The translations under genes were made by a program, and so were the position numbers. This document shows positions 2,864 through 30,114 of a stretch of 64,000 nucleotides of DNA, piece after piece. How positions within the stretch are numbered: position 1 is the stretch's first letter; the number at the start of each line of letters is the position of its first letter. This stretch comes from Clostridia bacterium (lineage in GTDB: Bacteria; Bacillota; Clostridia; Oscillospirales; Acutalibacteraceae), in contig JAFQJH010000008.1 of NCBI GenBank assembly GCA_017415025.1, forward strand, positions 62,001-126,000. The letters run 5' to 3'. Under the pieces are notes generated by a model that was not told the origin of the DNA, did no database searches, and saw only the letters and a list, made by a program, of their open reading frames with translations.

Positions 2864-3850
2864 TTAGTCTTCCTTCTTACGAAGTGCAACGATAGCTGCA
2901 CCGCTAACAGCGAGAAGAGAAATGATAGCAGCAGAAGCTGTTACGCTGTCGCCTGTGTCAGGGTTAACAACGTCACCGTCAGCAACGGGAGCATCTGTCT
3001 TGTCCTCAGCAGGAGCATCTGTCTTATCTTCTGAAGGCTCAGAGGGTTCTTCTGAAGGCTCAGAGGGCTCTTCTGAAGGCTCAGAGGGCTCTTCTGAAGG
3101 CTCAGAGGGCTCTTCTGAAGGCTCAGAGGGCTCTTCTGAAGGCTCAGAGGGCTCTTCTGAAGGCTCTGAAGGCTCTTCTGAAGGCTCAGAGGGCTCTTCT
3201 GAAGGCTCAGAGGGCTCTTCTGAAGGCTCGGAGGGTTCTTCTGAAGGCTCGGAGGGCTCTTCTGAAGGCTCGGAGGGCTCTTCTGAAGGCTCAGAGGGTT
3301 CTTCTGAAGGCTCTGAAGGCTCTTCTGAAGGCTCTGAAGGCTCTTCTGAAGGCTCTGAAGGCTCTTCGATTTCAGGGATGTTGTTGTTGATAACAACCTC
3401 GAACTTATCAGCAACTGTACCGCAAACATCAAATACTACAGTGATGTCGTCGGGACCGATCTCAGCACCGTCAACCTTATCGAAAGTAAAGGTAGCAACA
3501 GCACCCTTAATTTCATAAAGCTTTTCCGGATCAGAAGCATCAAGATATGCACCTGAAACGCTGAGAGTTGAAGCCTCAGCAAAGAGCATCAGGCTGGGAG
3601 CAGTTGCTGCAGTAGCAGCTGAACTACCTGAAATTTTCTCAGAGTTTACTTCAAAAGCAAAACCGATTGCCTGGAAGCCACCGTCAACGAGATCAACTGA
3701 AACAACAATCTGATCGTCATTCTCGCTGACAACGTTAAGTGCAAAAGTTGTTGTCTGAGCAGCAAGAGCTGATGTAAGCATTACAAGAGCCATGCTGAGA
3801 GCAACTGTTACAGAAATAACTGCTGATAAAATCTTTGCAACTTTATTCAT
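2864..3850 (-). CDS. Cell-wall-anchored protein: cohesin-like domain, EPS repeat stalk, NPDTG sorting signal
   Basis: A 328-residue secreted surface protein. Residues 1-31 form a signal peptide ending in LTSALAA. Residues ~32-158 look like an all-beta, cohesin-type domain: alternating hydrophobic strands, a DGGFQAIGFAFEV strand, and an IKGAVATFTFDKV strand followed by IGPDDITVVFD, the order seen in cohesins. Residues ~162-273 are about 16 copies of a 7-residue acidic unit (EPSEPSE), a rigid wall-spanning stalk. The end has NPDTGD at 296-301, a hydrophobic segment and RKKED, a sortase-type signal with NPDTG in place of LPXTG. GGTGA lies six bases before the ATG. The gene lies beside three dockerin proteins, so it may be their wall receptor. 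The cohesin call rests on pattern, not on a search. Confidence 0.7.
   Translation of the reverse strand: MNKVAKILSAVISVTVALSMALVMLTSALAAQTTTFALNVVSENDDQIVVSVDLVDGGFQAIGFAFEVNSEKISGSSAATAATAPSLMLFAEASTLSVSGAYLDASDPEKLYEIKGAVATFTFDKVDGAEIGPDDITVVFDVCGTVADKFEVVINNNIPEIEEPSEPSEEPSEPSEEPSEPSEEPSEPSEEPSEPSEEPSEPSEEPSEPSEEPSEPSEEPSEPSEEPSEPSEEPSEPSEEPSEPSEEPSEPSEEPSEPSEEPSEPSEEPSEPSEDKTDAPAEDKTDAPVADGDVVNPDTGDSVTASAAIISLLAVSGAAIVALRKKED
3029..3366. repeat. 21-bp in-frame tandem repeat (about 16 units)
   Basis: About 16 head-to-tail 21-bp units encode EPSEPSE. Units differ by a few silent changes (for example TCA/TCG/TCT for Ser), and runs of identical units lie next to each other, a sign of recent expansion by slippage or unequal crossing over. 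Copy number is likely to vary between strains. Confidence 0.95.
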
Positions 3851-3942
3851 AGTTAATCACCATTTTCTCCTTTATAAATTTGCACCGCAGTGCATATATT
3901 TAGACATCCGCGATTTAGGCGAAACCGCCGATGAACTAAAAC

Positions 3943-4887
3943 TTAATAAATGAAATTTGAATACTGCATCTGATGGCACATTACAGCGTCCATATTGAGA
4001 GTATAGACAATTGCAAAAGTAATCTTTGCGGTAAATGCCATATCAACGCTCATATCAACGGAAACGAACTCACCTGTTCTCGGGTCGAGGACGAATGAGA
4101 TATAACCGTTTTTATAATACATATCGCCGACCTTCATACTGATTACGGGCGTGCTGCCTGACTCAAGCTCCTGCTTCATAGTCGCATAATCGGGAAGTCC
4201 GAAGAATTTTGAAACCAAACTGTCAGTCTTCGGATTTTTCTCGTCCTTGAAATCAAGTCTGACACTATATTCACCTGTCGGCAGTCTCTCATAAGAGACA
4301 CTCTTGAATACGGAGGCATCGGTAATGCCGCTGGGCAAGGGAAGGTTGCTGAGTGCTGTTGACGTTCCCTGGCGCATAATGTTGGAGTACTTGTCCTCCT
4401 GAAGCAAGTCCTTCTTGAGGTCGTTTAATTCCTCCTCGGGCAGGTCATCAACCAAAGAACCCGAAAGATCAACCTTTGTTGCAGTTGAGCTGAGGTCGAA
4501 CTTATATGCAGGAATTGCCTCGCGGGCATCCACAACTGCATTGTTGTAAAGGGCAAGAATTTCGTTGTCGTTCTTCGGTGCCTTTACCGTAACCTCAACG
4601 GAGAAGTACGGTAACTGCTTGACAGAAACCATAAGCACCTCGAGGGCATCAAGCGAATTGATTCTGCCGTCGCCGTTGACGTCAGCAACAACAAGGCGCT
4701 CATCAGGGATAAGCGATGCCTTTACGCTGTGCTGAAGGATCATAAGAGCATCGATTGAATTGATTTTTGTATCCATGTTGATGTCGCCGTAAACAACGTC
4801 GCTCGCAGATGCGGTCATTGCAAGACCCGCTACGATAACAAGTGACATCAGCAACGCAAGAATTCTTTTAGAAATATTTTTCATCAT
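3943..4887 (-). CDS. Secreted protein with N-terminal type I-like dockerin
   Basis: A 314-residue secreted protein of unknown function. I start at the ATG at 4885-4887, after an AGAAAG-like site, rather than at 4923, because a signal peptide begins there (MMKNISKRILALLMSL, cleavage near ASA). A dockerin follows directly: two calcium-binding repeats, DINMDTKINSIDALMILQHS and ADVNGDGRINSLDALEVLMV, each an EF-hand-like loop plus helix, with S-I/L-D at the usual recognition positions. The rest (~90-314) is an alpha/beta region that I cannot assign; it has many strands near the end (VGDMYYKNGYISFVLD). N-terminal dockerins are unusual, since most sit at the C-terminus. The gene is divergent from the dockerin pair at 5106-6999 and has its own promoter. 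Confidence 0.8.
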   Translation of the reverse strand: MMKNISKRILALLMSLVIVAGLAMTASASDVVYGDINMDTKINSIDALMILQHSVKASLIPDERLVVADVNGDGRINSLDALEVLMVSVKQLPYFSVEVTVKAPKNDNEILALYNNAVVDAREAIPAYKFDLSSTATKVDLSGSLVDDLPEEELNDLKKDLLQEDKYSNIMRQGTSTALSNLPLPSGITDASVFKSVSYERLPTGEYSVRLDFKDEKNPKTDSLVSKFFGLPDYATMKQELESGSTPVISMKVGDMYYKNGYISFVLDPRTGEFVSVDMSVDMAFTAKITFAIVYTLNMDAVMCHQMQYSNFIY

Positions 4888-4963
4888 TATGACTTCTTTC
4901 TTAATATTAAATGCACCTTGCAAGAGAGCATAACACTACATCTTGTGCATTATACTCGGTGTT

Positions 4964-4992
4964 ATTATAAACTATGTCGCTTATTCTGTCAA
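4964..4992 (-). promoter_or_regulatory. Sigma-A promoter of the dockerin gene at 3943-4887
   Basis: On the minus strand TTGACA (4987-4992), a 17-base spacer and TATAAT (4964-4969): both hexamers match consensus exactly. Confidence 0.85.
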
Positions 4993-5040
4993 TAGGAAAA
5001 TACAGGACAAAACAGTACAATAATAAAAATAATTGTTGCA

Positions 5041-5069
5041 TTGACACAATACTTCTTTTAATGTATAAT
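5041..5069 (+). promoter_or_regulatory. Consensus sigma-A promoter of the dockerin operon 5106-6999
   Basis: TTGACA (5041-5046), 17-base spacer, TATAAT (5064-5069), an exact consensus match. The divergent consensus promoter at 4964-4992 is only about 50 bases away, so a shared regulator could act on both. Confidence 0.88.
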
Positions 5070-5105
5070 GAAATAGAATATAAACTGTTTCAAGGAGGAA
5101 AAGAA

Positions 5106-5972
5106 ATGAAAAAATCATATATTAAGGTTGCGCTATCTGCTATGCTTGCATTTGTCGTTGCATTTTCGTGTATGAGCATTGCGATTGCCGCAGACGTTAA
5201 AGTCGTTACTCCCCCGAGCAAAACAACCCTCTACCAGGGCATTGATTGGTCCTACAACAAATCGGGAAAGGTTGCGCTCATCGGCGGTATCAACCTTTCG
5301 GGCACAGTTCTTTCCTATAATTCAAAAACCGTTGAATACAAGGTGACTAATAAATTCCCCAATATGTATTCTTCATCAGCTTCAGGCAGTTGGGCACTCG
5401 GCAAAAATACAATGAAGATAACCTGCAGCGATTTCCCGTCTTCGGTTTACGCTGAAACTACGGTCAATTTTGTCGGAGTTGATTCGATTTCCATTATCAA
5501 CCCGCCCAAGAAAACCATTCTGCGCGAGGGCACGGATTGGGAATTAAGCGGTCTTGGTGATGTTGAATTTACCGAGCTTGACCTTACGGGTCTTTCACTC
5601 AAGGTAAAATACACGGACGGCACGGTGAAGAACATATCTTACGACGATAACAAGCTCATCGGCTGGTCAGTTCCCAAGGGTGTTGACAGTGCCGAGCCCG
5701 GCTACACAACATTGTACGCCACCTTCTGCGGCAAGAGTGCACCGTTCACGGTCAACTTCCTTGCAAAAAACGCTTATCTTTACGGCGATACAAACGGCGA
5801 TTTCAAAATCAATTCGATCGATGCTCTTGCCGTTCTTCAGCATTCCGTAGGCAATATTACACTCAAGGACAAATACAACGTACAGGCTGATGTCACAAGG
5901 GACGGCAAAATCAATTCCCTTGATGCTCTGAGCATTCTTCAGTTTGTAGTCGGAATTCAGACAACCTTATAA
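5106..5972 (+). CDS. Secreted protein with two bacterial Ig-like domains and C-terminal dockerin
   Basis: A 288-residue secreted protein. The ATG at 5106 follows AGGAGG and starts a signal peptide (MKKSYIKVALSAMLAFVV, cleavage near AIAA). A longer open frame back to 4974 crosses the promoter and is rejected. Two similar ~90-residue beta domains follow, each opening with PP(S/K)KT(T/I)L.(Q/E)G.DW, resembling bacterial Ig-like or MucBP-like modules. The end is a canonical dockerin: YGDTNGDFKINSIDALAVLQ and ADVTRDGKINSLDALSILQF. No catalytic domain is seen, so it may be a binding or adaptor subunit. It is the first gene of an operon with the DUF4474 gene 13 bases downstream. Confidence 0.82.
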   Translation: MKKSYIKVALSAMLAFVVAFSCMSIAIAADVKVVTPPSKTTLYQGIDWSYNKSGKVALIGGINLSGTVLSYNSKTVEYKVTNKFPNMYSSSASGSWALGKNTMKITCSDFPSSVYAETTVNFVGVDSISIINPPKKTILREGTDWELSGLGDVEFTELDLTGLSLKVKYTDGTVKNISYDDNKLIGWSVPKGVDSAEPGYTTLYATFCGKSAPFTVNFLAKNAYLYGDTNGDFKINSIDALAVLQHSVGNITLKDKYNVQADVTRDGKINSLDALSILQFVVGIQTTL

Positions 5973-5985
5973 GGAGGAACAGATA

Positions 5986-6999
5986 ATGAAAATTGCAAAA
6001 TCAATTATTTCAGTTTTTCTCACACTCGCGATTGTATTCGGCACATCCGCCCTCTTCGCTGTCAGCGTTTCTGCCGCAGATAACTCTCTCGGCGATACAA
6101 ACAGCGACGGTGCAATCAACTCCTTTGATGCTCTTATAATTGTAAGATACTGCACAGGTCAGGAACAGCTTACCGCCGCTGAAATCAAGGCTGCTGACGT
6201 TGACGGAAACGGTAAAATCAACTCAACGGATGCGCTTTATATTCTCCACTTTTCAGTAGGCAAAATCACGAGCTTCCCCGCAGGCAGTACATCAGATTCC
6301 GGCCGTGTTCAGATTTTCGGCAACTTCTGGTACGACCCTGCAACGGGAAAGGTTACAAACACTGACGGTTCGGGTCTCCTCGGCTTCTCTTATGATGCAA
6401 GAGAGGGTGTTTTCTACGCTTCAAGTAACGCCTGGCAGAGAACCTTCGGCTATACATTCATCTATGACGTTGCGGCTCCCGTAATCATCTGTTGGTTCGA
6501 TACAACAAGAATTTTCTTTGAGTATGACAATAAAGAGTGGATGGTACAGCTCTGGAAGGGTCAGTACGGCTGGGTACTTATCGGTGCTGAAATCGGTCTT
6601 TACTACCGCGATTTTGATAACCCGATGATTGACGAAAACGGCGTAAACTACTTCAAGTGTGCCGATGACGATCTTCTTATCAAGATGAGTATGAGCCTTT
6701 ACAGAAACAACACCGCTCTCTTCTCGAGAGGTCAGCAGTATTCATGGTGGCTGACAGGCTTTGTTCCCGGTGCTCTCAACGGTTGGGGCGCTCAGCCGAC
6801 AGCAACGGATGACCTTTCACTTAACGCAACGCTCACGTTCACCGATACTGAAATGATGCTTGCTTTCATTGAAGGTCTTGAGAACGCTTCAAAGGTTGAA
6901 CACAACGCTACAATGACTTCAAGAGAAATTGATTTTGTCAAGGGCGAGGATTACTTCGTAAACTATGCAAAGAATGCAGTAACCTTCACATGGCAGTAA
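5986..6999 (+). CDS. Secreted dockerin-DUF4474 protein
   Basis: A 337-residue secreted protein. A signal peptide (residues 1-31, ending VSVSAAD) is followed by a dockerin: LGDTNSDGAINSFDALIIVR and ADVDGNGKINSTDALYILHF. Residues ~105-330 match my memory of DUF4474, a domain of unknown function in Clostridia: LGFSYDAREGVFYASSNAWQ, RTFGYTFIYDVAAPVI, then EWMVQLWKGQYGWVLIGAEI with the typical WKGQYG and GAEIG(L/I)YY strings. DUF4474 is rich in aromatic residues and may bind or process a wall or lipid substrate, but that is not known. The gene is co-transcribed with the upstream Ig-dockerin gene (13-base gap, AAGGAGG site) and ends at the terminator at 7021. Confidence 0.8.
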   Translation: MKIAKSIISVFLTLAIVFGTSALFAVSVSAADNSLGDTNSDGAINSFDALIIVRYCTGQEQLTAAEIKAADVDGNGKINSTDALYILHFSVGKITSFPAGSTSDSGRVQIFGNFWYDPATGKVTNTDGSGLLGFSYDAREGVFYASSNAWQRTFGYTFIYDVAAPVIICWFDTTRIFFEYDNKEWMVQLWKGQYGWVLIGAEIGLYYRDFDNPMIDENGVNYFKCADDDLLIKMSMSLYRNNTALFSRGQQYSWWLTGFVPGALNGWGAQPTATDDLSLNATLTFTDTEMMLAFIEGLENASKVEHNATMTSREIDFVKGEDYFVNYAKNAVTFTWQ

Positions 7000-7020
7000 T
7001 TTCATAACAGCATATAATTA

Positions 7021-7053
7021 ACGGCTTGAGTTGCAACTCAAGCCGTTTGTTTT
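7021..7053 (+). terminator. Intrinsic terminator of the dockerin operon
   Basis: Perfect inverted repeat ACGGCTTGAGTT/AACTCAAGCCGT (7021-7046) followed by TTTGTTTTT. It lies between convergent genes and separates them. Confidence 0.9.
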
Positions 7054-21982: not shown

Positions 21983-24900
21983 TTAAACGTCGACGCCCTT
22001 ACCTGTTGTCTGGTCAATTACCATTGTACCTGCAACAATAGCCTGTATTACCGCCTTATCCTTAGCATTAATCTGCACTCTCACACCTTCTACGTTAGCC
22101 GCAAGCTTTTCTGCCTGTGAAAGTGATGCTGTACCTGCGATTGATGCTGCGATTTTTGAACCGTCGCGTACACCGATTGTCGCGCTTCCGTCAACGTCGC
22201 CGTAGATAAGGATTACATATTCGGCGATGAGTTCGCCTGACAGTGATTTGACAAACACCTTTGAGCCTGTGCCGAGATAGCGGGACGTTGTCATCTCATA
22301 TTCGAGTGTCACATCCTCGTAATCAACATACGTGCTCTGGAACTTTGCCTTGGTAAGGTTTGTCTGAAGACCGTAGATGTAGTTGACACCCGACTGCGTT
22401 TTAACCGCTGCCGTTCCCTTGAGCTCAAAACGCTCGTTAAGCGGTACAAGCGAATCAATATAGCCCTGAAGGGTGGATACCATTTCATCTACCTGTGCCT
22501 GTGAATCAATTGGGAGCTCCATATTCTTTGACACAGTTTCTTCCCTATAAGAAGTGATAAGAGACATTACCTCATTAAAATTCTTATATGTATTAGTATA
22601 AATCTCCGAGGACGAATTGTCAAGTAAATCCAGGATTTTTTGAAGTTCTGTGTAATCTGCCAATTTTACTTTTAATTCATTGGTAAGATTAACTATATTA
22701 TCTGCGTACTGCTGAACCTTATCCTGCTCATTTACGGACAAATCGTAGTTAACCTCGTCAATCGCCTGTCGGAGAAGAGCAACGCTTTCATCAGTATAGA
22801 TGCCTTCGTCGATTTTTGCCTGTGCATTATCTATCGCCTCTCTGACCGCTGTGTAATCGGCAGATTTATAGCGAAGGAACTCAACCGCCTGCTCAATCGA
22901 AAGAGCGTAAACATCAATCTCACTCTGATGAGTAATATCGAGCCCGTATACAACCGAACCAATCTGCTGTTGAAGATAATCCCAGCTATCCTGCGTATAG
23001 ACGGAGGAATCAGTCGGCACCTTGGCAATCGCCGCCGTTACGGCACTGTAATCGCCTGCCTTATACTTAAGGGATTTGATAGCATTACCGATAGAGGTTA
23101 TATAACGGTCAACAGTTGCCTGCTTATCGGCAGTATATGTTCGATTGATTGAGTTTACGGTCGCATTAAGAGTCGCAACGCTGAGGTTTGTATACAGCGA
23201 AAGGTCATCGGGTATTTCAAGTAGCTTAAGGTCAACCTGCGTATAATCTGCAGGTGCGCAAACAAGCAATTCGATTGCATCCTTAATTGAATCCGCGTAA
23301 GAGTCAACCTCTGACTGATATCTGATATCAAGTCCGTCAACAACAGACGCAATAGCAACGTTCAGACCGGAAATTGAATCGGGTGTATAATATGTATATC
23401 CGGGATGTGCCGCAGAATATGCCTCATCGCGGTCAAGCTCAGCCTGAGCGAGTGCAAGCTGATTATTAACTTCCGAATAATTTGCCGGAAGGTATTCAAG
23501 CTCGTCGATAGCTGTCTGAATCGCAACAGCATAAGAGTCAACCGTTGCCTGCTCGCTTATCGGCTTGTTGTTGATTACCGCGGCATAAACCTGAGTAAGG
23601 CGGCTGAGGCTTTCCTCTGTATAAAGCTCCGAGCCGTTCTGAACAATGTTATAAGCCTCTGTCTGGAGCTGTTTAACAAGAGTATAGTCTGCAGGATTTT
23701 CCGTCAGGGAGTTCAGAGCGTCAAGAATTGCGGTTGCATAGGCATTGACTGTTTCCTGATATGTAAAATCAAGGTTACGGACAACATTTGCAATTGCGGT
23801 CTGAACCTTCGACCAGTCGGAATAGAAGGTTTCAACGGTGAAGCCGTATGAATCGGCATATCTCTGTGCAATTTCGTTCTCGTGCGCCTGAACAGCAGCG
23901 ATTGCATCGTCAACCAAAGTGTAATCAGCGGCATTCATAAGAAGGCTGTTGATTGCTGATTCGAGTGCAGAAACAGCACGGTTAATATCGCTCTGATATC
24001 TGATATCAAGACCGAGCTTCGCTTCAAGGTTGCTGACAGCGGTATCCACTGCAGACATATCATCGTAGATTGAACGGTCGAGACCGTAAGCTACGGCAAG
24101 AATATCATAAGCGGCATTTGTATCCGCCGGCTTGTAAACAAGCTTTGTGAGCAAATCGTTAAGCTTTGCGGTCGCCTCATCAATCTGCGACTGGTAGGAA
24201 AGATCCTTACCCTTGAGTGCAATCAGCTCGTTGTAAGCCGCCGTAAGCTGTGTTGCAATATCGTCAACAAGGTGAGAGAGATTAACCCTTTTATATGCAG
24301 CTTCCGCCTGCGCCGCCTGTGTAAAGTTTGCAGTTTTAAGGGTAAGAGCATCAATTGACCTTTCAAGAAGCAGGACGTAGCCGTTGACCGTTGCCTGGTC
24401 GCTTATGAGTAACGGCTCGGCAACAACGTAGCCGTCAAGCTCATCATAAACACAGCCTGATTTTATAAGTGCAGATACGAGCTTATCCCAATTGTTATAC
24501 GACTCTTCAGCGGTAAGACCGTAAAGTGTCGGGCAACGCTTGATAAGATTGTTGACTGTGTTAAGGTGTCTGTTGAATTCTGTGTAATCAGCCTGTGCCT
24601 CTTCGAGGGCATCCAGAGCAGCCTTAAGGTCTGTGCCTAGCTTATCTGCTGCAGGCTGATAAATCGAGCTGATGTTATCAACATAATTATCAAGAATGTT
24701 CTGCACCTTTGCCCAGGATGAAAGCGTATAATAATTCGGATTTTTGGACATCGCCTGTGAATAATACGCTGAAGTTACGGAATAATCTGCAGTTCTCATC
24801 GTAAGCGCATTATATGCATCACGAAGAGCGTTATATTTTTCATCAATTTCTGTCTGTGTTGTGTTGGGCTTGTTAAGGCAGGAGGTAGCCGACTTATAAG

Positions 24901-26281
24901 CATTGAAGAAATTCTCCCAACCTGATGAATAGTACCATGACTGCGGGTTATAGCCCTTGAACTCATCAATACCCAGATCCGTTGTCATAATTGTCGGATC
25001 AGTTCCGCGGATACCTTCAACAAGCGTTCTCAACGCACCCTTATCATAAACCACGATTTCGAGGCTGTGTGAATGGCCGAGGAAAACCTCACTCCAATTT
25101 GCCGCTGTCTGATATTTAACGGTAACCGTAAAATCGTATGTGCCGACAGCATCGTTCGGACCTGTACCCGTAAAGTAAATCGGAAATGCTTCGCCCGGAT
25201 TATATATTGAGCCGGAATAGCCCGACATTCCGAGCTGTGAAACAGCGGTTCCGTGATTAAAGGGAGTTCCGTCATCATCTGAATCAGAATATGTTTTGGT
25301 AATTCCGAGATCTGCAAAGGTATTGCGAAGCGAAACCGTTACTCTTTCGCCGGATTCGCTAGAATACTGAACGATTGAAGTAATAAGACGCAGGTTAAGA
25401 TCGGAAAGGGTTGAATGAATGCTTTTATCAAAATAGACATAAGAAAGCGGTCTGTTTGAATCCGCCTGGAATGAAACGTTATAATCACGGCTGGCGCTGT
25501 GACCGTCAAAATTTTTCATCATACCGTATGCGGTTGTCCAGCCCGGCTGTGAGCCGGTGCTTTCAAAATCGACACTTCCCGTTCCTGAAGAGCCGCCGTA
25601 AAAAGAGCCGTAGGTGTTTGCACCCATAATATATGATGCAACATAAGAACGGTTTTTGTTGCTCTGTCCGAAGCCGAATTCTTCGTAGGTTCTTTTATAC
25701 GTATAAATACCTGCCGGTTGAGATATTGCTTCGACATAGGAGGTTCCGTGGGTTTCATACTGACGCGGATATTCCTTACCCGTAATTGCATTATAATCTG
25801 TGTAAGAGTAAGAAACAGTAAAGAGAAGTGTTGTACCCACGGTTGCAGTACCGCCGAGAACCGACCATACGTAAGTACCGTTAGAATAAGCATAATCGCT
25901 CACTGTAACAGTAGTATTGTTACAGGAAACTGTGGGCGGCGAATCAAGCTCAACACCGGGTGTGAAAGTAATCTGCGTTGCAACGGGAGTTTCGCCCGCG
26001 TAAGCAGTTGAAGACGCAAAGCTGCCGCCGAGCTCGGGGATACCCGAGGGAGTAGCCTTGACAATAACAGAGTTTGTACCTGAAGGAGCATGCATAGAAT
26101 TGACGGCATAAGCAACTCGTGTCACCTCTGTTACGTCAACAATAGCCATAGGTCGTCTGATAGCAAGTGATGAGTTTGCAGAAACATCTGGAGCTGCCGA
26201 TGCCGTTATTGCAAACGGCAAGGAAGTCAGAACCAACGCTGCAACAATAATCAGACTTGCAAGCCTTTTTACGATTTTCAT
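21983..26281 (-). CDS. Giant secreted FIVAR-repeat protein with degenerate dockerin-like end
   Basis: A 1432-residue exported protein from the ATG at 26279-26281, which follows GGTGGTG; an extension to 26296 uses TTG and is not favoured. The signal peptide (MKIVKRLASLIIVAALVLTS) is followed by ~450 residues of beta structure. Then about 11 helical repeats of ~65 residues each contain ADYT or a variant (for example PADYTLV, SADYTAV, AGDYSAV); these match FIVAR repeats (PF07554), known from Gram-positive adhesins. The C-terminus YGDVDGSATIGVRDGSKIA and ANVEGVRVQINAKDKAV resembles a dockerin whose second calcium loop has lost the acidic residues. It is co-transcribed with the cohesin-like gene at 20196. 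Confidence 0.8.
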   Translation of the reverse strand: MKIVKRLASLIIVAALVLTSLPFAITASAAPDVSANSSLAIRRPMAIVDVTEVTRVAYAVNSMHAPSGTNSVIVKATPSGIPELGGSFASSTAYAGETPVATQITFTPGVELDSPPTVSCNNTTVTVSDYAYSNGTYVWSVLGGTATVGTTLLFTVSYSYTDYNAITGKEYPRQYETHGTSYVEAISQPAGIYTYKRTYEEFGFGQSNKNRSYVASYIMGANTYGSFYGGSSGTGSVDFESTGSQPGWTTAYGMMKNFDGHSASRDYNVSFQADSNRPLSYVYFDKSIHSTLSDLNLRLITSIVQYSSESGERVTVSLRNTFADLGITKTYSDSDDDGTPFNHGTAVSQLGMSGYSGSIYNPGEAFPIYFTGTGPNDAVGTYDFTVTVKYQTAANWSEVFLGHSHSLEIVVYDKGALRTLVEGIRGTDPTIMTTDLGIDEFKGYNPQSWYYSSGWENFFNAYKSATSCLNKPNTTQTEIDEKYNALRDAYNALTMRTADYSVTSAYYSQAMSKNPNYYTLSSWAKVQNILDNYVDNISSIYQPAADKLGTDLKAALDALEEAQADYTEFNRHLNTVNNLIKRCPTLYGLTAEESYNNWDKLVSALIKSGCVYDELDGYVVAEPLLISDQATVNGYVLLLERSIDALTLKTANFTQAAQAEAAYKRVNLSHLVDDIATQLTAAYNELIALKGKDLSYQSQIDEATAKLNDLLTKLVYKPADTNAAYDILAVAYGLDRSIYDDMSAVDTAVSNLEAKLGLDIRYQSDINRAVSALESAINSLLMNAADYTLVDDAIAAVQAHENEIAQRYADSYGFTVETFYSDWSKVQTAIANVVRNLDFTYQETVNAYATAILDALNSLTENPADYTLVKQLQTEAYNIVQNGSELYTEESLSRLTQVYAAVINNKPISEQATVDSYAVAIQTAIDELEYLPANYSEVNNQLALAQAELDRDEAYSAAHPGYTYYTPDSISGLNVAIASVVDGLDIRYQSEVDSYADSIKDAIELLVCAPADYTQVDLKLLEIPDDLSLYTNLSVATLNATVNSINRTYTADKQATVDRYITSIGNAIKSLKYKAGDYSAVTAAIAKVPTDSSVYTQDSWDYLQQQIGSVVYGLDITHQSEIDVYALSIEQAVEFLRYKSADYTAVREAIDNAQAKIDEGIYTDESVALLRQAIDEVNYDLSVNEQDKVQQYADNIVNLTNELKVKLADYTELQKILDLLDNSSSEIYTNTYKNFNEVMSLITSYREETVSKNMELPIDSQAQVDEMVSTLQGYIDSLVPLNERFELKGTAAVKTQSGVNYIYGLQTNLTKAKFQSTYVDYEDVTLEYEMTTSRYLGTGSKVFVKSLSGELIAEYVILIYGDVDGSATIGVRDGSKIAASIAGTASLSQAEKLAANVEGVRVQINAKDKAVIQAIVAGTMVIDQTTGKGVDV

Positions 26282-26332
26282 ACCTGACACCACCAAATAA
26301 AATAATTGTCCAGTATAAACTTATACGTATGT

Positions 26333-26466: not shown

Positions 26467-29400
26467 TTATAAAGACATTGCTCTTGTTGTTGTAACCAGA
26501 TCAATGAATGTGAATTTCTTGACGGTGTAGTCCATCGGAGCCTGGTTAATAGTTATCTTCTTGAGACCTGCCTGTTCAGTCATATCAGCATCACCCTTAC
26601 CGATTGAGCCATTGAAGTCAATGTCACCTGCGTAGAGGATGTGATGTGTTGATGTACCTGTACGAAGCATTGAAGCAGCATAAGCTCTCATAAGAACTGT
26701 ATCCTGACCGTCAACATAAGAGTCACCGTTAACGTCACCGAAGATGATCATTGTGTACTGAGTGTCAACGTCGTACTCGCCGTCACCGTCGGGGTCGGAT
26801 GCGATACTGATCTTTGAGCCTGTACCGTTACCTGCGTCTGTCGGCTCGAAGAGCATTGTATCACCGGCTGTCGGATAGCCGTAGTACATTGAATAGAAGA
26901 AGTAGAAGTCGCCGCCCCACATTTCTTCTTCCTCGGGAGGATAGAAGCCTTCATCATAACCGAAGGTATACATAAACTCGTTATCAGAGAAGTTATAGGT
27001 CGGGTCATAATACTCGAGAATGGGAATAGCCTGAAGATTATCAATAGCATCACGAAGTCTGTCTGCAACACCGTCAACGATAATCTGGCTGTCGATATCG
27101 TACGGAATTTCGTTATTGAAATCGAAAGCCTCGATGTAACGTTCGATAACCTCGTTTACTGATTCCTCAGTAAAGAGTGTCGGGTCAGAAAGGTCATAGA
27201 TACGTGAAAGCTGATTCTGAAGCTCTGTATAGTCAGCGTCACCCTTATTCGGCTTAAGACCGTTAACAGCGTCACGAAGCTGTGCACGAGCCATATTAAC
27301 CTTTGACTGCGGATAGTCACCGAGTGTACCTGTTGCAGCGTAGCCTGCATACTCATCCATAACCTTTTCAGCGAATGCCATTGCCTTTTCATAAGCATCC
27401 CAGGTACGTCTTGAGTAAACCTCACCCTCGTTAGAGTAGTTAGCGTTTACAGCCTTCTGATAAATCTTGTTGAGCTGATAGTTGTTAGCTGTTGTCGGAT
27501 TGTAGGTTAATACGTCATCATACGTATGCTTGAGCTGGAAGTAAGCATAAGTAATATCCGAACGTGCGGGAGCAGCGTTAACATCGGGGTCAGCCTCTGA
27601 TGCATCATAAGCGTCAATAATGCTCTTTGCATAGTCAAGTGCATCCTCAAAATCACTGAATGCCCAGATCTTATAGTCAACGTCTGTCATATACTCATAA
27701 GCATCGTCGTAATACTTGATGCCGTCATTGTCGGGAAGCTTGTGCTCCTCATAGAGTGCCTTGAGTTCCTTGATTGTGAAGGACATACCCGGATTCTTTG
27801 CAAGCTCATCCTCGTAGTGAACCTTCATATAATCGAACTGATCAAGGTCGATAACGCCGATAAGTGTTGCAACAAGGTCTGCTGACTTGCCGAAGAGTGC
27901 ATCAGAGTCTGTAAGTCTGATAAGGTACTCAAGAAGCTTCTTAGCTGTCTGCTGGAGGCCGGTACCGTTAAGAGCGGCATTGCTGTTGTATCTTGCAGGA
28001 TATGAAGCACCTGTATCTGTTGTATTTCTTTCGATGAGGAGTTCATCGAGAGTTGTATAAGCATAAGGAACAACGAGGCTGAGCTGGTAAGCGTTATCGT
28101 TAAGCTTTGAAGCAGAAGCCTTTTCTGTCGGAAGACGAAGGAGACCGTTGAGAACACGTGCAACAAGGTTAACAAGTGCCTGTGAAAGCGGCTTGTCAAG
28201 CTCTGATTCGCCTGCAGGTCTTCTACCGATGATGCTGAGAAGACCGTTGATATTAAAGTCAAGAATGTTACCGAGGATGCTGTCAACGAAGAGGTTTTCC
28301 ATACCGTACTGGCTGTCCTCAACACCGTAGAATACGTTTGTGAGAGGAATAACCTGGCCGACTGTCATATAGAGCTTATACCACGGGCTGTTCATATTTT
28401 CAGCTGTCTTATAGGTATCATCCGGATAGAGGTTGAAAAGAACAGCATACTGACCGAGAAGCTGATCGAAAACACCGTTGAGAAGCTGGTCAAGAGTCGG
28501 TGTGGGATTATCAAGAAGAGCCTGATATGCAGGTTCTACGTTGCCGGGCTTGTAGCCCAACTGCTCGATGATGTAGTATCTGAGAACTGCTGCACCAACA
28601 TCAAGACACTGCATTGAATTAGGGTTGATTTCGCCGCTCTCAATCTTTGCCTCAAAGTCAACAGAAGGAATAACCTCTGCTGCCATATTAACGAATGTGT
28701 AAGTTGCAAGCTCCTTGATAGTGTCACAGTTATCCGGGAAATAGAAGCCGTCAACAAATGCCTCAAGAAGGAACTTAACCAAGAATGCAAATACCTGCTC
28801 TTCTGTTGCTGTTTCAAGGTATGCGCTCTGTTCCTCAGTAAGAACGGGGAAGTCAGAAAGAAGAGTCGGGAGGATGGGAAGAACACCCTTGAGGAGGTCA
28901 GCGAGCTGAGCCATAAGGTCAGGAGCAACCGTAAGATATCTGCCGCCGTTACCGTCGTCCTCGAGGTAAACGTAGCTTGTGATACCCTCTTTAAGAACGT
29001 ACTCAAGACCGTAGTTGATCTTGTCGAGGTTGTTCGGATTTGCAGGATTCGGGCAGCCTACCATTGTAAGGAAAGCTTCCATAACCTCTGCAGCCGATGC
29101 AGTCTCGGGAAGACCTACTGTCTCATAAGTAACGAAGAGATTGATAACCATATCAACGTAAGACATCTCTTCTGCTGTCGGGTCGTCAACAGGAATCTCG
29201 AGGAGGTCGATGAGAAGTGTACCTGCGAAAGGAATAACAACGTCATCGATAAGAGCTACAAAGATATCCTTTGCAAAATCGTAGATCGAAGCCTTCGTGA
29301 TATCTACCTGGTCAGCAGAAAGTGACGGGCAGAGTCCGAGAAGACCCATCTCCTGTGCAAGCGTACCGTCGGGATTAGTCTCGAGACCGAGGAAATCCGC

Positions 29401-30114
29401 AACAACGTTCTCACCTGTCTCAGCATCTGCTGTAAGATCACAGATGAAGGACATAAGACGGTTCTGAAGGAAATCGTTGATGATAGCGTCAAGATTTGAG
29501 CCTGCCTTATCATAGTTTTCCTCAAGCATATCAGGATCTATAAGAAGATTATAGATAGTATATGTAAGGAAGCCGTGAAGGTCGTCGAGCATCGGGATCA
29601 TTTCGCTAAGGTTAACAAAGTTACCGATAACACCGAGGTCAAGGTCATTACCGATGAGCTTGTAAAGCGGGTCAGAGTTGACCGATACGAACTCAAGGAA
29701 CTTTGTAAAGAACTCAAGGTCGCTCATTGTTGCCGAACGGCGACGGAAATTCTCATTCTCGGGAATAGACCAGTCACAATCCTCGATATCACCGAGGTTA
29801 AGAATCGTAGCGACACCGTAAAGTGCGCTCGATGTAATGTTGTTAACTGAATCGAAAAGTGAGTCGAGAGAATAGATTTTAATCTCGATACCAAGGAGCT
29901 CCTCGTCAACGTTAAGACCTGAAAGAAGGTCATCGTCAAGGAAGTCGAGCAAAGCTGAAGCTGCCTGAGCATTCGTGAAGTACGGGGTATTGATTGTATC
30001 ATACCCTGCTGGTCTCTCGTAGTTTGTTTTGTACGCACTCGCGCCAACCGTGAATACCGAAAGAAGCATCAGTATGGCAAGAAGCACGGACAACAGTCTT
30101 TTAGATTGTTTCAT
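26467..30114 (-). CDS. Giant secreted protein with FIVAR-like repeats and dockerin-like end
   Basis: A 1215-residue exported protein (signal peptide 1-26, ending VGASA; GGAGGTG site before the ATG). The first ~780 residues are acidic and helical with many LL-x-x-L strings and no family that I recognise. Residues ~790-1080 hold FIVAR-like helical units (for example DADYTELQNQLSRIYDLSD). The end has a dockerin-like pair, FGDVNGDSYVDGQDTVLMRA and AGDIDFNGSIGKGDADMTEQ, with intact acidic calcium loops, followed by a short tail. It has its own promoter and terminator, upstream of the related FIVAR gene. It may be a surface-located docking or adhesion protein; the function is unproven. Confidence 0.75.
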   Translation of the reverse strand: MKQSKRLLSVLLAILMLLSVFTVGASAYKTNYERPAGYDTINTPYFTNAQAASALLDFLDDDLLSGLNVDEELLGIEIKIYSLDSLFDSVNNITSSALYGVATILNLGDIEDCDWSIPENENFRRRSATMSDLEFFTKFLEFVSVNSDPLYKLIGNDLDLGVIGNFVNLSEMIPMLDDLHGFLTYTIYNLLIDPDMLEENYDKAGSNLDAIINDFLQNRLMSFICDLTADAETGENVVADFLGLETNPDGTLAQEMGLLGLCPSLSADQVDITKASIYDFAKDIFVALIDDVVIPFAGTLLIDLLEIPVDDPTAEEMSYVDMVINLFVTYETVGLPETASAAEVMEAFLTMVGCPNPANPNNLDKINYGLEYVLKEGITSYVYLEDDGNGGRYLTVAPDLMAQLADLLKGVLPILPTLLSDFPVLTEEQSAYLETATEEQVFAFLVKFLLEAFVDGFYFPDNCDTIKELATYTFVNMAAEVIPSVDFEAKIESGEINPNSMQCLDVGAAVLRYYIIEQLGYKPGNVEPAYQALLDNPTPTLDQLLNGVFDQLLGQYAVLFNLYPDDTYKTAENMNSPWYKLYMTVGQVIPLTNVFYGVEDSQYGMENLFVDSILGNILDFNINGLLSIIGRRPAGESELDKPLSQALVNLVARVLNGLLRLPTEKASASKLNDNAYQLSLVVPYAYTTLDELLIERNTTDTGASYPARYNSNAALNGTGLQQTAKKLLEYLIRLTDSDALFGKSADLVATLIGVIDLDQFDYMKVHYEDELAKNPGMSFTIKELKALYEEHKLPDNDGIKYYDDAYEYMTDVDYKIWAFSDFEDALDYAKSIIDAYDASEADPDVNAAPARSDITYAYFQLKHTYDDVLTYNPTTANNYQLNKIYQKAVNANYSNEGEVYSRRTWDAYEKAMAFAEKVMDEYAGYAATGTLGDYPQSKVNMARAQLRDAVNGLKPNKGDADYTELQNQLSRIYDLSDPTLFTEESVNEVIERYIEAFDFNNEIPYDIDSQIIVDGVADRLRDAIDNLQAIPILEYYDPTYNFSDNEFMYTFGYDEGFYPPEEEEMWGGDFYFFYSMYYGYPTAGDTMLFEPTDAGNGTGSKISIASDPDGDGEYDVDTQYTMIIFGDVNGDSYVDGQDTVLMRAYAASMLRTGTSTHHILYAGDIDFNGSIGKGDADMTEQAGLKKITINQAPMDYTVKKFTFIDLVTTTRAMSL

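What the first reader, a model, noticed from the sequence alone, without database searches (positions are those of the whole stretch)
2864..6999. A wall-anchored cohesin-like protein next to three dockerin proteins: a possible miniature cellulosome-like system
Seen directly: a secreted protein with an all-beta N-terminal domain, a 16-unit EPSEPSE stalk and an NPDTGD/hydrophobic/charged sorting signal, beside three secreted proteins with dockerin pairs that have full calcium loops (DxNxDxxIN...DA). Known: dockerins bind cohesins, and anchoring scaffoldins carry cohesins plus sorting signals. Inferred: the 328-residue protein is a one-cohesin wall anchor for the three neighbours. Two points are unusual: none of the three carries a recognisable enzyme domain, and two have the dockerin at the N-terminus.
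Basis: partly seen in the sequence, partly recalled or inferred. Interest (0 to 1): 0.72.

Follow-up and report, generated by a model that had tools for sequence, protein, structure and literature searches.

The report
Wall-anchored cohesin with dockerin partners
A bacterium whose close relatives live in the guts of plant-eating animals carries a four-gene set that looks like a socket fixed to the cell wall plus three secreted proteins with matching plugs; it resembles part of a cellulosome but seems to carry no fibre-degrading enzymes, so it probably displays other proteins on the cell surface.

Summary
Residues 32-158 of the 2864-3850 product escape Pfam's cohesin model, but AlphaFold2 gives a nine-strand sandwich (pLDDT 97.5) whose 16 PDB matches at E<=0.001 are all cohesins; profile comparison links the family to canonical cohesins (92.9-95.1%; control 0.1-0.2%). 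Anchor plus three dockerin genes keep order and orientation in 12 of 18 genus genomes; four more keep a cohesin-like gene beside two of them. Divergent near-perfect sigma-70 promoters lie between the halves in 12 of 12. Two class-B-like sortases fit the NPDTGD signal. The cohesin-like family was found in 1 of 135 genera. It is not a cellulosome: Pfam found no cellulase, hemicellulase or CBM in 20 of 21 dockerin proteins. Binding was not tested; a mirror-tree test gave no clear support. Best reading: a ScaE-like, sortase-anchored single-cohesin receptor for non-carbohydrase dockerin proteins.

The parts
2864..3850 (-). anchor gene: signal peptide, cohesin-like domain, repeat stalk, NPxTG sorting signal (328 aa)
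3377..3757 (-). divergent cohesin domain (residues 32-158)
   Evidence: AlphaFold2 pLDDT 97.5; Foldseek: first 22 PDB hits are cohesins; hhalign to cohesins 92.9%
3027..3367 (-). stalk: 21-bp unit x 16.2, acidic Pro/Ser/Glu repeat
2867..2965 (-). sorting signal NPDTGD + hydrophobic stretch + RKKED
3943..4887 (-). D1: signal peptide, N-terminal dockerin, about 200-residue domain of unknown fold
4636..4791 (-). D1 dockerin module
4964..4992 (-). TTGACA-17-TATAAT, 12 of 12, reading towards D1 and the anchor
   Evidence: a 12/12 or 11/12 site in 12 of 12 cassettes
5041..5069 (+). TTGACA-17-TATAAT, 12 of 12, reading towards D2 and D3
   Evidence: a 12/12 site in 12 of 12 cassettes
5106..5972 (+). 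D2: signal peptide, Ig-like region (Big_3, sub-threshold), C-terminal dockerin
5781..5936 (+). D2 dockerin module
5986..6999 (+). D3: signal peptide, N-terminal dockerin, DUF4474 (PF14751)
6088..6240 (+). D3 dockerin module
6379..6939 (+). DUF4474 domain of D3 (1.4e-46)
7020..7047 (+). terminator-like hairpin after D3
   Evidence: consensus match only

Best explanation
The 2864-3850 protein is a single-cohesin anchoring receptor. It is exported, joined to the cell wall by a class B-type sortase at NPDT^GD, and holds a divergent cohesin domain out on a repeat stalk. Dockerin proteins made from the same divergent promoter pair (D1 with the anchor; D2 with D3) plug into it through their calcium-loop dockerins and are displayed on the cell surface; other dockerin proteins of the genome with similar NSxDAL loops may use it too. 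The cargo is not carbohydrase but surface domains (DUF4474, Ig-like and unknown), so the system works as a non-covalent surface-display platform rather than a cellulosome. Shown here by computation: fold, profile kinship, sorting signal, sortases, conserved cassette, conserved promoter pair. Inferred: export, anchoring, high expression, binding, function of the cargo.
For: Nine-strand model, pLDDT 97.5; all 16 PDB matches with E<=0.001, and all of the first 22, are cohesins, best TMq 0.67 to a Ruminococcus flavefaciens ScaB cohesin. hhalign to 14 canonical cohesins of the genus 92.9% and 95.1%, against 0.1-0.2% for the D2 control. The 14-row family profile finds a ScaB cohesin (4ums, E 0.0062) first among 177,635 PDB sequences; PF00963 matches 3 of 14 family members, best E 3e-4. 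Four-gene cassette in 12 of 18 genus genomes; a cohesin-like gene with D2 and D3 in 4 more. Of the 77 loci kept from the D3 scan, the 15 whose DUF4474 has a dockerin all have a cohesin-like gene beside it and the other 62 have none in the flank held, up to 10 kb. 22 of 24 promoter sites in 12 cassettes are 12/12, two are 11/12; the only two 12/12 sites in the 64-kb window are these. Sortases in 18 of 18 genomes; the own pair is closest to SrtB, one of two over the cut-off. One class B sortase is reported to need Asp at P2', as in NPxTGD (PMC11987632, passages).
Against: Pfam does not call the window domain a cohesin at E<=5; the single sequence and the 18-row profile A3 find no cohesin among PDB sequences. 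7 of the 50 fold matches listed are not cohesins, among them two streptococcal Antigen I/II adhesin domains at E 0.02-0.03 (ranks 47, 49). No binding test was possible. Mirror-tree in 12 genomes: the cohesin against the D1, D2 and D3 dockerins gives partial r 0.13, 0.31 and -0.41 (permutation p 0.17, 0.04, 0.99); the strongest link is with the non-dockerin part of D1 (0.47, p 0.001). The anchor cohesin varies much more (mean p-distance 0.64) than the D3 dockerin (0.25). The strands that correspond to the dockerin face of known cohesins (8-3-6-5, recalled) are more variable than most strands of the other sheet. The same SrtB paper also reports a helpful Asp at P5; here P5 is Val. In 2 of 18 genomes no cohesin-like gene was found beside D2/D3: G313 has D2 and D3 without it in the 9 kb read, G308 has no full-length D3. 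Four of 15 complete anchors lack the sorting motif and end in a membrane segment.
Confidence: 0.66

Rival explanations
1. The anchor's cohesin-like domain no longer binds dockerins; it binds another ligand (host or food glycan, or another surface protein), and the dockerins of D1-D3 use the canonical cohesin, which in the own genome sits in a cohesin-LRR-dockerin protein.
For: A PF00963 cohesin over the cut-off exists in 18 of 18 genus genomes. In the same 12 genomes it is less variable (mean p-distance 0.48) than the anchor domain (0.64), while the D3 dockerin is well conserved (0.25). The mirror-tree test does not support the anchor-dockerin pair. The anchor's putative binding face is not conserved. 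Weak fold matches to Antigen I/II adhesin domains.
Against: It is the anchor that is kept beside the dockerin genes and next to the conserved promoter pair. The own canonical cohesin protein ends in its own dockerin and shows no wall anchor by eye.
Confidence: 0.2
2. The four genes are co-expressed surface proteins kept together for regulation only; their cohesin and dockerin modules bind partners encoded elsewhere and not each other.
For: 18 of the 21 dockerins of the genome, and 3 of the 4 places of the cohesin-like family, lie outside this cassette; the shared divergent promoters give a reason for clustering by themselves.
Against: Adjacency of the two complementary modules is improbable by chance (9e-6 expected) and goes with the DUF4474 proteins that have a dockerin (15 of 15 against 0 of 62).
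Confidence: 0.09
3. A true miniature cellulosome that degrades plant or mucin carbohydrate, with the enzymes not recognised inside D1-D3 or missing from the incomplete assembly.
For: 13 of the 15 record titles of cassette-bearing relatives name a herbivore gut or faeces; the assembly is 83.6% complete; D1's domain and DUF4474 matched no solved structure by sequence.
Against: Of 21 dockerin proteins, 20 were scanned with Pfam at E<=0.01 or looser: the named catalytic-type domains are phage-tail lysozyme, GH25, C39-like peptidase (two, one below its cut-off) and CotH; no cellulase, hemicellulase or CBM. No protein with two PF00963 cohesins was found in the own genome.
Confidence: 0.05

Closest known systems
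ScaE of Ruminococcus flavefaciens (single-cohesin, sortase-anchored scaffoldin; PMC2930009 and PMC4081043, passages)
   Same: One cohesin, C-terminal sorting signal, encoded beside a partner gene (cttA) in a conserved cluster. Ruminococcal cohesins are often missed by standard profiles and found by AlphaFold2 (PMC11557425, passages).
   Different: NPDTGD instead of LPXTG; no ScaA/ScaB-type scaffoldin found in the own genome; partners are DUF4474, Ig-like and unknown proteins, not a cellulose binder; divergent promoter pair. ScaE itself was not compared by sequence.
cSca5 of the Limousia mucinolysome (PMC12997984, passages)
   Same: N-terminal cohesin with C-terminal LPxTG wall anchor; reported as the most highly expressed gene on mucin, which would fit the consensus promoters here.
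   Different: Serves mucin-degrading enzymes and multi-cohesin scaffoldins; neither was found in the own genome. Sequences were not compared.
Class B sortase substrates with NPxTG-type motifs (PMC11987632, passages)
   Same: NPxTGD with Asp at P2'; own sortases closest to TIGR03064.
   Different: The SrtB substrates named in those passages are a heme transporter and pilins; P5 here is Val, not Asp.
Dockerin proteins with LRR, peptidase or unknown modules in R. flavefaciens FD-1 (PMC2930009, passages)
   Same: Many dockerins on non-carbohydrase modules.
   Different: There they sit beside a large set of carbohydrase dockerin proteins; here none was found in the 20 of 21 scanned.

Membership tests
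Cohesin domain | Match to PF00963 over its gathering score | tested here: not met
   No match for the window protein at E<=5; 3 of 14 family members match at E<=1, best 3e-4
Cohesin domain | Nine-strand cohesin fold | tested here: met
   the first 22 PDB hits are cohesins
Cohesin domain | Homology to accepted cohesins by profile | tested here: met
   hhalign 92.9% and 95.1%, control 0.1-0.2%; 4ums E 0.0062. Against: profile A3 finds none among PDB sequences
Cohesin domain | Calcium-dependent dockerin binding | not testable with these tools
   No co-fold or assay; mirror-tree inconclusive
Anchoring scaffoldin (non-SLH, ScaE type) | Cohesin plus sorting signal in one secreted protein | tested here: met
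Anchoring scaffoldin (non-SLH, ScaE type) | Sortase in the same genome | tested here: met
   Two sortases
Anchoring scaffoldin (non-SLH, ScaE type) | A multi-cohesin scaffoldin with a dockerin for it to bind | tested here: inconclusive
   None in the own genome by PF00963, but the assembly is 83.6% complete; in two other genus genomes one frame holds two places of the cohesin-like family (G313:C31, G311:C56)
Type I dockerin | Two calcium-loop repeats, Dockerin_1 over cut-off | tested here: met
   45.0-54.5 bits for D1-D3; both loops listed
Cellulosome | Dockerin-bearing plant-cell-wall hydrolases and CBMs | tested here: not met
   20 of 21 dockerin proteins scanned: none; the last (L211) only read by eye
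Class B sortase substrate | NPxTG-type motif and a class B sortase in the genome | tested here: met
   NPDTGD; TIGR03064 156.8 and 137.3 bits, cut-off 153.75

The most novel reading that the evidence does not exclude
A genus-specific cohesin-dockerin system that has nothing to do with polysaccharide breakdown: a divergent cohesin lineage, fixed to wall or membrane in several ways and driven by consensus promoters, decorates the cell with some twenty exchangeable dockerin proteins (DUF4474, Ig-like, LRR, lysozyme, peptidase and unknown ones), that is, a plug-in surface coat.
Probability: 0.4. Interest if true: 0.75.

Novelty: new variant of a known kind. Interest (0 to 1): 0.56.

Why it matters
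Cohesin-dockerin pairs are known chiefly from carbohydrate-degrading complexes. A conserved cassette with a wall anchor, non-carbohydrase cargo and a pair of consensus promoters would show the module pair used as a general surface-display tool. It also supplies a very divergent cohesin lineage that Pfam misses, and gives the uncharacterised DUF4474 family a cell-surface setting.

Tried and rejected
First structure request: my frame was wrong. The pdb_via library was absent. PDB sequence searches for DUF4474, D1 and D2 matched the dockerin parts or weak, probably chance, stretches, so the cargo domains stay unexplained. No paper in the library holds the word DUF4474.

The dockerin protein beside the sortases (L196:3345-4226) looked like a dockerin-cohesin adaptor (PF00963 E 0.0046, below its cut-off), but hhalign gives only 12.9% to canonical cohesins and 0.2% to the anchor family, so I do not call it a cohesin. 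The mirror-tree test gave no clear support. The TIGR01167 scan of the own genome rings in 14 of 14 control genomes at E<=10. Of its 8 own hits two are over the cut-off: the window anchor, and a C9 protein that by eye is a multi-pass membrane protein; one below the cut-off (C22) is by eye a true LPDTGD signal; 5 of 8 were read. Considered and rejected: an Ig-like or adhesin fold for the anchor domain (no such chain among the first 22 fold hits; the D2 Ig-like control gives 0.1-0.2%).
Full report
Observation. The four genes are as described. The anchor has a 21-bp repeat of 16.2 copies and an NPDTGD sorting signal (TIGR01167 20.2 bits, cut-off 15.9; NF033846 21.1, below 23.5). D1, D2 and D3 have Dockerin_1 at 53.3, 45.0 and 54.5 bits. 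The starts of D1 and D2 should be moved to about 4887 and 5106. D3 carries DUF4474. The window lies in a 2.09-Mb assembly, 83.6% complete.

Is it a cohesin? Pfam says nothing for the window protein at E<=5, and the single sequence finds no cohesin among PDB sequences. BLAST of residues 1-158 over 300 genomes of the family hit 16: the own genome, three others of the genus with 3-4 places each, and 12 of other genera at E 2.5e-4 to 0.008; some of the latter are by eye cohesin-dockerin proteins (L015, L017, L025), others are clearly unrelated. A 14-row profile (A1) finds the family in 18 of 18 genus genomes, 3-7 places each, a few of them canonical cohesins, and in 6 of 398 family genomes at E<=1e-5, all six in this genus, 1 of 135 genera. 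Against PDB sequences A1's best hit is a ScaB cohesin (4ums, E 0.0062); the 18-row profile A3 finds none. PF00963 matches 3 of 14 members and, below its cut-off, two members in the genus-wide scan (G310:C7, G063:C82). hhalign to 14 canonical cohesins of the genus: 92.9% for A3 and 95.1% for A1; control against D2: 0.1% and 0.2%. AlphaFold2 with 18 sequences, one of them truncated: pLDDT 97.5, pTM 0.90, nine strands. Foldseek: 16 PDB matches with E<=0.001, all cohesins by title and length; the first 22 are cohesins, TMq 0.42-0.67 at 12-18% identity; 7 of the 50 listed are not cohesins (ranks 23, 40, 46-50). I conclude that it is a divergent cohesin domain.

Cassette. In the window and L096-L106 (12 of 18 genus genomes) the order D3, D2 / D1, anchor and the divergent orientation are the same; three of these anchors (L101, L102, L103) and one D3 (L105) are cut by contig ends. 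G306, G310 and G177 have a divergent version with one or two cohesin-like genes, D2, D3 and further dockerin genes. G312 has a cohesin-like gene, D2 and D3; G313 has D2 and D3 without one in the 9 kb read; G308 has no full-length D3. Anchors in the window and L116-L130: 18, of which 3 are cut; of the 15 complete ones 11 end in NPxTG[DE] and 4 in a membrane segment with a basic tail. The genome scan with the D3 alignment found 142 relatives and kept the best 80 (77 loci). The 15 loci whose DUF4474 has a dockerin all have a cohesin-like gene nearby; the other 62, some in the same genomes and some with short flanks, have none at E<=1e-3. 13 of the 15 titles name cattle, deer, sheep, goat or horse gut or faeces, two name no host. 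ispE lies next to D3 in 8 of the 12 cassettes (window, L097-L101, L103, L104); in the other four little or no flank was read there or ispE is absent from it. The locus therefore looks vertically inherited.

Expression. Between D1 and D2 lie two TTGACA-17-TATAAT promoters in opposite directions. In the 12 cassettes, 22 of 24 sites are 12/12 and two are 11/12 (minus-type sites of L102 and L105); base-shuffled regions give on average 0.01-0.06 sites of 11/12 or better. They stand out as conserved blocks of the intergenic alignment, and are the only two 12/12 sites in the 64-kb window, where nine 11/12 sites lie elsewhere. Seven other 12/12 sites occur in 134,827 bases of own-genome loci picked for dockerin or cohesin genes, three of them just upstream of dockerin genes (L195, L204, L208). 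The four divergent-version genomes were not scanned for promoters. High expression is an inference.

Anchoring. The own genome has two sortases in tandem, closest to SrtB (156.8 and 137.3 bits, cut-off 153.75). Sortases occur in 18 of 18 genus genomes. In 11 of the 18 sortase regions read a dockerin protein lies next to the sortase(s); in one more its homologue has no detected dockerin; in six it was not found. Of five NPxTG[DE] DNA matches in the own genome only the window anchor is a C-terminal sorting signal; one LPDTGD protein was also seen. Class B sortases take NPxTG-type motifs, and one needs Asp at P2' and is helped by Asp at P5 (PMC11987632, passages); NPDTGD has the first, the window protein (Val at P5) not the second.

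Cargo. Of 21 own dockerin proteins, 20 were scanned with Pfam and one (L211) was read by eye; L210 was cut at the locus end. Named domains: DUF4474, Big_3, phage-tail lysozyme, SH3 with a sub-threshold C39 peptidase, C39 peptidase with Big_2, CotH, GH25, BspA-type LRR (three, one of them with a canonical cohesin), GLUG; the rest have only the dockerin. No cellulase, hemicellulase or CBM. 16 of 19 dockerin ORFs listed have at least one NSxDAL loop; a second class has DGQD.

Mechanism. Exported anchor, sortase attachment, stalk, cohesin as socket; dockerin proteins made from the same divergent control region plug in. Binding is not shown. Against a tight private pair: the mirror-tree test, the variable putative binding face (face assignment recalled), and the contrast between a conserved D3 dockerin and a fast anchor domain. 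A canonical cohesin, present over the Pfam cut-off in 18 of 18 genomes and less variable in the same 12 genomes, is the obvious alternative partner.

Comparison. The plan is that of ScaE of R. flavefaciens (PMC2930009, PMC4081043, passages) and cSca5 of Limousia (PMC12997984, passages). Ruminococcal cohesins missed by InterPro profiles and found by AlphaFold2 are reported (PMC11557425, passages). So the kind is known; the lineage, the cassette, the non-carbohydrase cargo and the promoter pair make it a new variant.

Noticed in passing
L212:1443-2276, L213:1896-3395; L027, L033, L034, L035: Other cohesin-like proteins of the genus end in a Big_2-like region plus a hydrophobic aromatic tail (of the kind SYxxxQWIIIIVLFGWIWY) with no sorting motif or basic tail; possibly an unusual membrane anchor.
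   Followed up: no
L196:312-5661 (G000:C24): Locus of two sortases, a 356-aa protein and a dockerin protein, then a PHP-like gene (name by eye); the dockerin protein lies beside the sortase(s) in 11 of 18 genus genomes, with the dockerin at either end.
   Followed up: partly
window 26467-30114 and 21983-26296, minus strand: Two large secreted proteins (1215 and 1437 aa); the first has a marginal dockerin of the DGQD class, the second a weak FIVAR match and, by eye, a degenerate dockerin-like end.
   Followed up: partly
L131-L192: DUF4474-like domains occur widely in gut Clostridia on other secreted proteins, by eye with lipobox-like starts or Big_2-like regions, and in L178 with an IPETGD end; function unknown.
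   Followed up: partly
L291 (G309:C41): Run of canonical cohesin proteins (705, 1436 and at least 154 aa), two with dockerins, in one species of the genus.
   Followed up: no
G313:C31:2748-3554, G311:C56:1020-1886: Frames of 949 and 1472 aa with two places of the cohesin-like family each, possible multi-cohesin proteins.
   Followed up: no
L195 2647, L204 4751, L208 6006: Perfect consensus promoters just upstream of further dockerin genes.
   Followed up: no
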